21,221 nt of DNA from Candidatus Aminicenantota bacterium (GTDB lineage Bacteria; Acidobacteriota; Aminicenantia; Aminicenantales; Aminicenantaceae), in contig JAFGNQ010000349.1 of the NCBI GenBank assembly GCA_016926925.1, positions 1 through 21,221 on the forward strand. The letters are read 5' to 3'. The notes under the pieces are model-generated. The model worked only from the letters and a program-made list of their open reading frames with translations, was not told where the DNA came from and did not search any database. The position numbers and the translations under genes were made by a program. Shown one piece after another: positions 17,739-19,208 of this stretch (the stretch's first letter is position 1; every line of letters starts with the position of its first letter).

Positions 17739-18473
17739 TCAATCCTTCCTTTCCCGCAATTTTTCATCTAGCGTTCTCTTTTTCCCCGGAGAAATACGGT
17801 TTTTCCCCACCAAATCCGGTCTCATCACTGCTGTTTTCTCCAAGGCTTTTTTTTTTCGCCAGCTCTCAATTTTATTATGATCACCGGAAAAAAGAATTTC
17901 CGGAACTTGCATAGATCTAAAATCACGTGGTCGGGTGTACTGAGGATGATCCAACAGCCTATCGAAAAATGAGTCTTCTTGAACGGATTTTATCTTTCCC
18001 ACCACTCTGGGGATGAATCGTGATACGGCATCTACGAGAACTACCGCCGCAGGTTCACCTCCTGTCAGCACATAGTCGCCAATAGAAACCTCATGCGTCG
18101 CTAAAAAGTCGTTCACTCTTTCATCCACTCCTTCGTAGCGCCCGCAGATAATGCAAATCTGCGGAACCGAAGCAAATTCTTTCGCCAATCTGGAATCAAA
18201 CCTCCTGCCTTGCGGGGAGAGCAGAACAACGGGGGACTCCTTTGTGACCCTGATTGTTTCGACAGCCGAAAAAATCGGCTCAGGTTTCAACACCATCCCC
18301 TGCTTCCCGCCGAAAGGTCGGTCATCTACCTGTCGATGCTTACCGGGTGCGAAAGCACGCAAATCATGAATCTTAATCTCGATTATGCCTTTCTCCAGTG
18401 CCTTCCCTATGACTCCTCCGGAAAAAACACTTCCGAACATCTGCGGAAAGATAGTAATTATATCAAATCTCAT
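17739..18473 (-). CDS. trmD: tRNA (guanine-37-N1)-methyltransferase
   Basis: SAM-dependent SPOUT methyltransferase that makes m1G37 next to the anticodon and prevents +1 frameshifting, 244 residues. The trefoil-knot motifs are LSPQGRRF (85-92), GRYEGVDERV (111-120) and SIGDYVLTGGE (130-140), and the N-terminus MRFDIITIFPQMF is standard. The DDRPFGGKQGMVLKPEP segment has Lys-Gln where most family members have Gly-Pro or similar, a mild deviation. The ATG lies within the 3' end of rimM, overlapping by 11 bases, so translation of trmD probably depends on ribosomes finishing rimM. Confidence 0.96.
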   Translation of the reverse strand: MRFDIITIFPQMFGSVFSGGVIGKALEKGIIEIKIHDLRAFAPGKHRQVDDRPFGGKQGMVLKPEPIFSAVETIRVTKESPVVLLSPQGRRFDSRLAKEFASVPQICIICGRYEGVDERVNDFLATHEVSIGDYVLTGGEPAAVVLVDAVSRFIPRVVGKIKSVQEDSFFDRLLDHPQYTRPRDFRSMQVPEILFSGDHNKIESWRKKKALEKTAVMRPDLVGKNRISPGKKRTLDEKLRERKD

Positions 18474-18970
18474 TTATCTCTAAAAGTCCTTCCGGCGGGT
18501 CGATGACGACTTCCTTCTTCTGCAAATTGACCTCAATACATATTTCCCGAGTGAAGGGAACAAGAATCTCGGCTCCGCCTCGATCGACAACCAAGAGATC
18601 GTTGTTTCTGATGGCCACACAATCTTTGACGCGGCCTATCACGGTTCTCGTCAAGCTTAGAACAGAACAGCCGATGAGTTGAAAAAGGTAAAAATGCCCT
18701 CTCTCTAAGCGGGATAAATCTTCCTCAGGAATCAGACATTCCTGGTGCGCGAGTTCCTTTGCTTGGGTGAGGGTTTCGATCCCCTCAAGTTTTATGATGT
18801 AGAAATTCTTGTAGGGACGCAGAGACTCGACACGAAACTCTTTGAGAACTCCTTCTTTACTGAGGAATACCCTTGAAAAAAAAAGGCTTTTCCGCCTTTT
18901 GGGAAAGGAGCGCCAATCTCAACTCTCCTTTCTTTCCCTGACTCTTTAAAAGTTTTCCTATAATTATCAA
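18463..18970 (-). CDS. rimM: Ribosome maturation factor RimM, interrupted by a one-base frameshift
   Basis: RimM assists late 30S head assembly and binds S19. The N-terminal part starts at TTG (18970), one base after the khpA stop, and reads IIIGKLLKSQGKKGELRLAL, matching the family's I-G-K-I-x-x-x-x-G-x-x-G-E-L-x-V opening. The second part, in another frame, begins RVFLSKEG and continues through LSRLERGHFYLFQLIGCSV (the conserved domain junction) and the PRC-barrel NNDLLVVDRGGAEILVPF, ending at 18463. The frames meet at a run of nine T on the minus strand (18876-18884). With eight T the protein is continuous at 168 residues, the usual RimM length. As written, the first frame stops at 18857-18859 after 37 residues. 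Sequencing error, mutation or slippage are all possible. Confidence 0.85.
18876..18900 (-). promoter_or_regulatory. Intrinsic-terminator-like hairpin with U9 tail inside rimM
   Basis: On the minus strand AAAAGGC (18894-18900), loop GGAAAA and GCCTTTT (18881-18887) form a 7-bp stem, and the T run continues without a break to 18876. That is the layout of an intrinsic terminator or attenuator, though only three pairs are G-C. It lies within the coding sequence and exactly at the frame change. It could act as an attenuator before trmD-rplS, as a transcriptional slippage signal, or be coincidental. Confidence 0.5.
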
Positions 18971-18971
18971 A

Positions 18972-19208
18972 TTAGTTTTTTTCAATGATCTCGAGATTGA
19001 ATCTCCTTTTCAGCTTCATCCCGGCGGCACCGAGAATCACCCTGATAGCCCGTGCAGTCCTGCCTTGCTTACCGATGACTTTCCCTAGATCTTCCTGAGC
19101 GACCTTGAGTTCCAATATTGAAGTTTGCTCTCCCTCCAATTGGGATACCTGAACTTTGTCTGGATTGTCAACTAATGATTTGGCAATCATTTCAACGAGT
19201 TCTTTCAC
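18972..19208 (-). CDS. khpA: KH-domain RNA-binding protein KhpA
   Basis: A 78-residue single KH-domain protein, which in other bacteria pairs with KhpB/Jag as an RNA-binding regulator. The nucleic-acid-binding GxxG loop is [12 protein letters not shown] at about 45-56, with [12 protein letters not shown] before it. The GTG start at 19208 has a near-perfect TAAGGAGG Shine-Dalgarno five bases upstream. It sits between rpsP (21 bp) and rimM (1 bp), the conserved position for this gene. Confidence 0.93.

What the first reader, a model, noticed from the sequence alone, without database searches (positions are those of the whole stretch)
18876..18900. Terminator-like stem-loop feeding directly into the slippery run inside rimM
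The stem AAAAGGC/GCCTTTT with loop GGAAAA ends in the same T9 run where the frame breaks. Stem-loop-stimulated transcriptional slippage on U/A tracts, sharing features with intrinsic terminators, is established in other bacteria. A single element could both attenuate transcription into trmD-rplS-rnhB-TPR and set how much full-length RimM is made. That would be an unusual control point in a normally constitutive operon. The dual role is inference.
Basis: partly seen in the sequence, partly recalled or inferred. Interest (0 to 1): 0.72.

Follow-up and report, generated by a model that had tools for sequence, protein, structure and literature searches.

The report
Conserved slippery run splits rimM
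In this uncultured bacterium and in dozens of related species, a ribosome-assembly gene is thrown out of frame at the same run of nine or ten T's, so a whole protein can probably be made only when the copying enzyme slips on that run.

Summary
What matters is the run, not the hairpin. The window falls among Aminicenantia. In 132 fetched genomes of that class plus the window, 47 carry T9 or T10 at the same place; in 46 of these the two halves of RimM lie in different frames (31 need -1/+2 nt, 15 need +1/-2). None of the other 49 rows of the 96-row set is broken. Three species of one genus break rimM at another run, A10-A11. Of the neighbours, khpA and trmD show no frame break and rpsP one. Both rimM halves are under purifying selection (pooled dN/dS about 0.25). 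A terminator-like stem at the run occurs in 2 of 47 loci, 2.9 expected, so the attenuator idea is unsupported. Best explanation: RNA polymerase slips on the run, and only mRNAs of corrected length encode RimM. The principle is known (dnaX, mxiE, IS elements, endosymbionts); the gene, depth, two directions and second site appear new. No transcript data were available; whether regulation or entrenchment keeps it is open.

The parts
18857..18970 (-). rimM 5' part: probable TTG start one base after the khpA stop codon, N-terminal RimM motif (GKLLKSQGKKGEL), through the run to TAA in the unslipped frame; product 37 aa
   Evidence: PF01782 15.5 bits alone, below its curated cut-off of 23.5
18876..18884 (-). 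slippery run, T9 in the sense strand (A9 on +); T9/T10 at the homologous place in 46 fetched relatives
18881..18900 (-). stem-loop AAAAGGC-GGAAAA-GCCTTTT overlapping the first four T's; not conserved
18463..18875 (-). rimM 3' part (rest of the N domain plus PRC barrel) in the frame reached by -1 or +2 nt, stop at 18465-18463; no ATG/GTG/TTG near the run in this frame
   Evidence: PF01782 34.2 and PF24986 52.4 bits alone; PF01782 52.0 when joined
18972..19208 (-). khpA, upstream neighbour, whole
17739..18473 (-). trmD, downstream neighbour, overlaps the rimM end by 11 nt, whole

Best explanation
rimM of this lineage is a slippage-dependent gene. Shown by sequence: its two halves lie in different frames joined by a T9 run, the arrangement is widespread and old in Aminicenantia, both halves are kept by purifying selection, and in most species no other usual start codon serves the second half. 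Inferred: RNA polymerase, while copying the T9-T10 run, realigns the weak rU:dA hybrid and makes mRNAs with one or more U's missing or added. In the window the copies with one U less, or two more, give full-length RimM; the faithful copies give a stub of 37 residues. Slippage would therefore cap RimM relative to the S16 and L19 genes of the same operon. Once the frame was broken the run became indispensable, which would explain why it is kept at 9-10 T's even in GC-rich genomes. A regulatory benefit is possible but not shown.
For: 46 of 47 rows with T9/T10 have the N motif and the C part in different frames; 0 of the 49 other rows of the 96-row set. No run at the site is longer than 10 (T9 in 39, T10 in 8). 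Both shift classes occur at the same run (31 need -1/+2, 15 need +1/-2), and the sister species L093 and L096 differ in class by one base: easy for a polymerase that inserts and deletes, hard for a direction-specific ribosomal signal. Pooled dN/dS 0.250 before and 0.241 after the run over 18 close pairs that I chose. Control genes in 134 sequences: trmD 0 broken (123 whole), khpA 0 (130 whole), rpsP 1 (126 whole). 41 of 46 broken loci have no ATG/GTG/TTG in the C frame near the run. The joined protein scores as RimM and is predicted to fold as RimM, pLDDT 89, with the join in a loop between the second and third strand. A second, different site: A10/A11 in three species of one genus. Nine is the length at which selection against A/T runs shows in a large share of bacterial genomes (PMC1088944, passages); E. 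coli polymerase needs at least 7 T's to slip and prefers T to A runs (PMC6260861, abstract and passages).
Against: No RNA or protein data. 14 of the 15 class 2 loci also fit -1 ribosomal frameshifting on U_UUU_UUN (codons), and three of the 15 have strong predicted structure downstream. The relatives are metagenome assemblies. L105 keeps a T9 in frame and three relatives have an in-frame T7, so the run is not always out of frame. In single pairs of the dN/dS test the short upstream part scatters, two pairs near 1 and two without any synonymous change.
Confidence: 0.8

Rival explanations
1. Programmed ribosomal frameshifting on the U tract: the ribosome, not the polymerase, changes frame. It could also add to slippage in some species.
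For: 14 of 15 class 2 loci place U_UUU_UUN in the right phase for a -1 shift (codon table). Three class 2 loci (L108, L151, L162) have downstream structure with z of -2.9 or lower; the class 2 mean, which I took by hand from the list, is about -0.84.
Against: 31 of 46 broken loci, the window included, need +1 (or -2), and no stop codon follows the slip codons there (codons); one mechanism would have to work in both directions at one site, and L093/L096 flip direction between sisters. A heptamer needs fewer T's than the 9-10 found in all 46 loci broken here, which include silent positions. Mean downstream z over all 47 loci is -0.40.
Confidence: 0.12
2. Assembly error or dying gene: the run length is wrong in the records, or rimM is being lost.
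For: Homopolymers are error-prone; some related records are multi-megabase metagenome contigs, and two of those genomes show short neighbours (L087, L099).
Against: 46 of 47 T9/T10 rows are broken, in two phases. Random run lengths would be in frame in a third of cases; 1 of 47 is (naive P 1.3e-7, kinship ignored). Six of the ten run-bearing named loci bear SPAdes- or MEGAHIT-style contig names (styles recalled), two with coverage about 109 and 128. dN/dS about 0.25 on both sides. One RimM match in 130 of 132 genomes, two in G029 and G099.
Confidence: 0.03
3. Terminator-like attenuator: hairpin plus U tract ends part of the transcripts before trmD, with or without slippage. Not exclusive of slippage.
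For: Hairpin and U tract are physically there in the window.
Against: Hairpin not conserved: 2 of 47 against 2.9 expected; mean folding z of upstream plus run -0.24; the stem itself is not significant.
Confidence: 0.08
4. Split gene: a short N peptide and a separately started C part assemble into RimM.
For: Databases hold many of these proteins with starts just upstream of the run.
Against: The starts share no sequence; 41 of 46 broken loci have no ATG/GTG/TTG near the run in that frame, five do; the break falls inside the first beta-barrel.
Confidence: 0.04
5. Replication slippage as a phase-variable switch of RimM.
For: T9 runs mutate easily; an in-frame relative 89% identical to L098 exists in the protein collection (P0002).
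Against: Only 1 of 47 T9/T10 rows is in frame; RimM is a ribosome-assembly factor, not a surface trait.
Confidence: 0.06

Closest known systems
Thermus thermophilus dnaX (A9 transcriptional slippage)
   Same: Nine-base A/T run in a core bacterial gene, heterogeneous mRNA lengths, two products (PMC5009743 and PMC1088944, passages)
   Different: There the templated length gives the full protein; in rimM the full protein needs the slip
Shigella flexneri mxiE / spa13
   Same: Slippage on a U run joins two overlapping frames of one gene (PMC1088944 and PMC5009743, passages)
   Different: Plasmid-borne secretion genes; here a ribosome-assembly gene across much of a class, in both shift directions
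Blochmannia / Buchnera frameshifted genes rescued at poly(A/T) tracts
   Same: Frame breaks in homopolymers kept without decay and rescued by polymerase slippage (PMC3017870, passages; of the primary papers I tried one, Wernegreen 2010, not held)
   Different: AT-rich reduced endosymbionts with many such tracts; here genomes of 1.5-5 Mb, loci of GC up to 0.65, one homologous site, deep conservation, phase switching
Roseiflexus IS630 stem-loop-stimulated slippage
   Same: Hairpin next to a slippery run gives transcripts one base short (PMC5009743, passages)
   Different: Hairpin required there; here it is not conserved

Membership tests
Genes that depend on transcriptional slippage | A/T homopolymer of about 8-9 or more at the frame junction | tested here: met
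   T9 or T10 at the junction in all 46 loci broken at this site; A10-A11 in the three broken elsewhere
Genes that depend on transcriptional slippage | Both sides of the junction conserved as one protein | tested here: met
   PF01782 15.5 and 34.2 bits apart, 52.0 joined; dN/dS 0.250 / 0.241
Genes that depend on transcriptional slippage | Long run where the frame is broken, none needed where it is not | tested here: met
   46 of 47 against 0 of 49; one exception, L105 (T9, in frame)
Genes that depend on transcriptional slippage | mRNA of non-templated length at the run | not testable with these tools
   No RNA data available
-1 programmed ribosomal frameshift genes | X_XXY_YYZ heptamer in phase giving the C frame | tested here: not met
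   Met in 14 of 46 broken loci; the window and 30 others need +1/-2
-1 programmed ribosomal frameshift genes | Downstream stimulatory structure | tested here: inconclusive
   Mean z of 70 nt downstream -0.40 over 47 loci, but L108, L151 and L162 are at -2.9 or lower
Stem-loop-stimulated slippage / intrinsic terminator | Conserved G+C-containing stem ending at the run | tested here: not met
   2 of 47 loci, 2.9 expected from shuffles
RimM | RimM N domain plus PRC barrel, RimM fold | tested here: met
   Read-through product: PF01782 52.0, PF24986 51.8 bits; 3h9n E 1.7e-15 by sequence; Foldseek: six of the seven matches at E<=0.001 are titled RimM, the seventh (2qgg) has no function name; TM by query 0.40-0.74

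The most novel reading that the evidence does not exclude
Slippage in rimM is a selected control of ribosome assembly: because slippage efficiency depends on nucleotide levels (recalled from work on other slippage sites), the share of full-length RimM, and so the rate of 30S head maturation and of recovery from growth arrest, would track the cell's nucleotide supply without any regulator protein. The same gene acquired a second slippery run (A10-A11) independently in another Aminicenantia genus.
Probability: 0.22. Interest if true: 0.88.

Novelty: new variant of a known kind. Interest (0 to 1): 0.72.

Why it matters
The cases of required transcriptional slippage that I saw described are isolated cellular genes, mobile elements, or genes of reduced endosymbionts. 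Here a ribosome-assembly gene of bacteria with ordinary-sized genomes (free-living by inference, not tested) appears to depend on it across much of a class, in both shift directions and at two unrelated sites. It makes testable whether slippage is kept for regulation or as an irreversible ratchet, and it warns that gene finders truncate RimM in these genomes.

Tried and rejected
Hairpin as the conserved signal: rejected (the terminator count printed came from a bug in my search loop and is not used, only its folding z-scores are). Downstream stimulator for ribosomal frameshifting: no consistent signal over 47 loci, three strong single cases. Rfam: no match at gathering thresholds in the window. 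Codon argument: local Phe codon use makes TTT-TTT in all 47 rows unlikely (log10 about -28, or -16 for 14 rows with GC over 0.55), but the rows were picked for their run and are kin, so I use this only as description. Other slippage genes in two genomes: of the 30 T9 places of G012 and G006 given as loci, my rule flagged L193 and L201; both lie opposite a long reverse-strand open frame, the two L201 pieces had no Pfam match, and neither was pursued. A single clade of run-bearing rows: rejected by the AU test, p 0.004, 46 run rows of 91, so the history is an old gain with losses or several gains; parsimony gives 7 changes of the run on the tree (count) and 6 on the tree. The deepest branches, L103 among them, are placed differently in the two trees and weakly supported.

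Rows dropped: the tree uses 91 of 96 rows (over 150 residues); 10 of 142 genomes had no RimM match; a second partial match in G029 was not fetched; for L085 my script misplaced the khpA stop, so its distance (689) is ignored while its run and frames are. In the control, trmD of L087 and L222 and khpA of L099 are short without a second-frame piece and were counted neither whole nor broken.

Papers: search listings only for (two listed nothing); passages of PMC5009743, PMC3711429, PMC1088944, PMC3017870, PMC6260861, PMC13246957; outline with abstract of PMC6149199 and PMC13246957. Sharma 2011 and Wernegreen 2010 are not held, nor anything under a third id that I guessed for Penno 2015; Penno 2015 and Tamas 2008 are known to me only through citing passages or from memory.

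Full report
Observation. The minus-strand operon reads ffh, rpsP, khpA, rimM, trmD, rplS, rnhB, TPR protein (names of khpA, rimM, trmD and the TPR protein from Pfam, the others by my reading of the proteins). rimM probably starts with TTG at 18970, one base after the khpA stop codon, reads IIIGKLLKSQGKKGELRLALLSQKAEKP and enters T9 at 18884-18876; the unslipped frame ends at TAA 18859-18857. The rest of RimM is open in the frame reached by removing one T or adding two. The stem-loop is as described but unremarkable (z -1.30, 21 of 200 shuffles as stable).

The joined protein is RimM. PF01782 gives 15.5 bits to the first piece and 34.2 to the second and 52.0 to the join; PDB RimM chains match by sequence. 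The predicted fold (pLDDT 89.1) puts the junction, residues 29-33, in a loop that ends where the third strand begins, and six of the seven Foldseek matches at E<=0.001 are titled RimM. A search of 5.8 billion proteins returned 34 relatives at E<=0.001; 11 of the best 13 are only 127-147 aa long, most of them beginning just before FFSR, on contigs up to 4.4 Mb, and the organism names given among the best 14 are all Candidatus Aminicenantes. Gene finders had met the same break.

Relatives. One scan of named genomes showed the run with one extra base in several Aminicenantes. A search of the class of one of them (Aminicenantia in GTDB, a recalled name) gave RimM in 132 of 142 genomes, and I hold a locus for all 132. 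In the 96-row set (window, L081-L175), 47 have T9 (39) or T10 (8), 84-96 nt after the khpA stop where that distance could be taken; three have T7 and 46 have no run of 7 or more at the place. Frames were judged by scoring the N part in three frames: 46 of the 47 are broken (31 need -1/+2, 15 need +1/-2), one (L105) is in frame; the three T7 and the 46 without a run are all in frame. Of the remaining 37 genomes (L176-L181, L212-L243), three of one genus (L178, L179, L181) are broken at another place, an A11, A11 and A10 run that begins 126-127 nt after the start of the RimM match; their N parts are recognised only weakly (8-9 bits). In 32 the RimM match lies in one frame, one gene is split over two contig ends and one is a fragment. 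In an even sample of 159 genomes of the phylum (154 with a match; the list of matches was cut short by the tool), the listed matches that begin at model position 27-30 are those of G001, G018, G027 and G089, all T9 species of the class; one other, G148, begins at 50 inside a long open frame.

Chance and controls. No other T run of 9 or more occurs in the 302,121 bases of 91 loci; nine A runs of 9-10 do. Genome-wide T9 is not absent: 118+116 overlapping hits in G012 and 17+21 in G006. Neighbours in 134 sequences: trmD 0 broken, 123 whole; khpA 0 broken, 130 whole; rpsP 1 broken (L106), 126 whole; the rest cut, short or not found. dN/dS is 0.250 upstream and 0.241 downstream, pooled over 18 close pairs that I chose; single pairs scatter, two upstream values being near 1.

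History. On a tree of KhpA, RimM-C and TrmD the run is in L103, in a 33-row clade with the window (all but the three T7 rows), in L110/L117/L131, in a GC-rich clade of 12 and in L108. A careful tree without RimM, 91 rows, needs 6 changes of the run and 9 of the frame, and one clade of run-bearing rows is rejected, p 0.004. The deepest branches differ between the two trees. So the run is old and was lost, or gained, several times, and the phase has flipped. L093 and L096, close sisters, need opposite shifts.

Mechanism. Need for both directions at one site, 9-10 T's in all 46 loci broken here including silent positions outside any ribosomal heptamer, and no usual start codon for the second half in 41 of 46 favour RNA polymerase slippage. 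That E. coli polymerase needs at least 7 T's and favours T runs, and that selection against A/T runs shows at nine in a large share of genomes, are published (PMC6260861, abstract and passages; PMC1088944, passages). Against it stands the lack of any RNA data, and 14 of 15 class 2 loci would also suit a -1 ribosomal shift, three of the 15 with strong structure downstream. The hairpin is not part of the conserved design: 2 of 47 loci have a terminator-like stem at the run, 2.9 expected. It may raise slippage in the window alone.

Why it is kept. Two readings remain. Entrenchment: once out of frame, losing the run is costly, while lineages that regain the frame may lose the run (three T7 rows; L105 still T9). 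Regulation: slippage would lower RimM relative to S16 and L19 of the same operon and could follow nucleotide supply (inference; loss of RimM delays recovery from growth arrest in E. coli, PMC13246957, abstract). The second site in another genus fits either. In the held library, searches for Aminicenantes with frameshift or with transcriptional slippage gave no paper, and those for rimM with transcriptional slippage (4 papers) or with frameshift and ribosome maturation (9 papers) listed none on such a case by title and start of abstract; the word rimM does not occur in the held main texts of PMC5009743 (cut at 300,000 characters), PMC3711429 or PMC1088944. The primary survey of Sharma 2011 could not be read, so a listing there is not excluded. 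The rivals' odds overlap, since attenuation, phase variation or some ribosomal shifting could go along with slippage.

Noticed in passing
L178, L179, L181 (genomes G119, G121, G120), 126-137 nt after the start of the RimM match: rimM is out of frame at an A10-A11 run, a different place from the T9 site, in all three held species of one genus.
   Followed up: yes
window 17847-17856 (A10 on the minus strand, in trmD); A9 at the same distance from the rimM stop in L105: An in-frame A10 run lies near the 3' end of trmD in the window; slippage there would give a second TrmD form.
   Followed up: no
L087 and L222 (trmD), L099 (khpA): Neighbour genes whose open frame is short without a second-frame piece found; L087 and L099 come from genomes with multi-megabase contigs, so these may be indel errors of the assemblies.
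   Followed up: no
L106, locus 899-1143: rpsP is split over two frames in one species, the only control gene scored as broken.
   Followed up: no
P0002 (682-base public contig): A full-length in-frame RimM 89% identical over 136 residues to that of the T9 species L098; whether its contig is DNA with another run length or transcript-derived could not be seen.
   Followed up: partly
L093 and L096: Sister species, both with T10, differ by one base just after the run and so need opposite frame corrections.
   Followed up: yes
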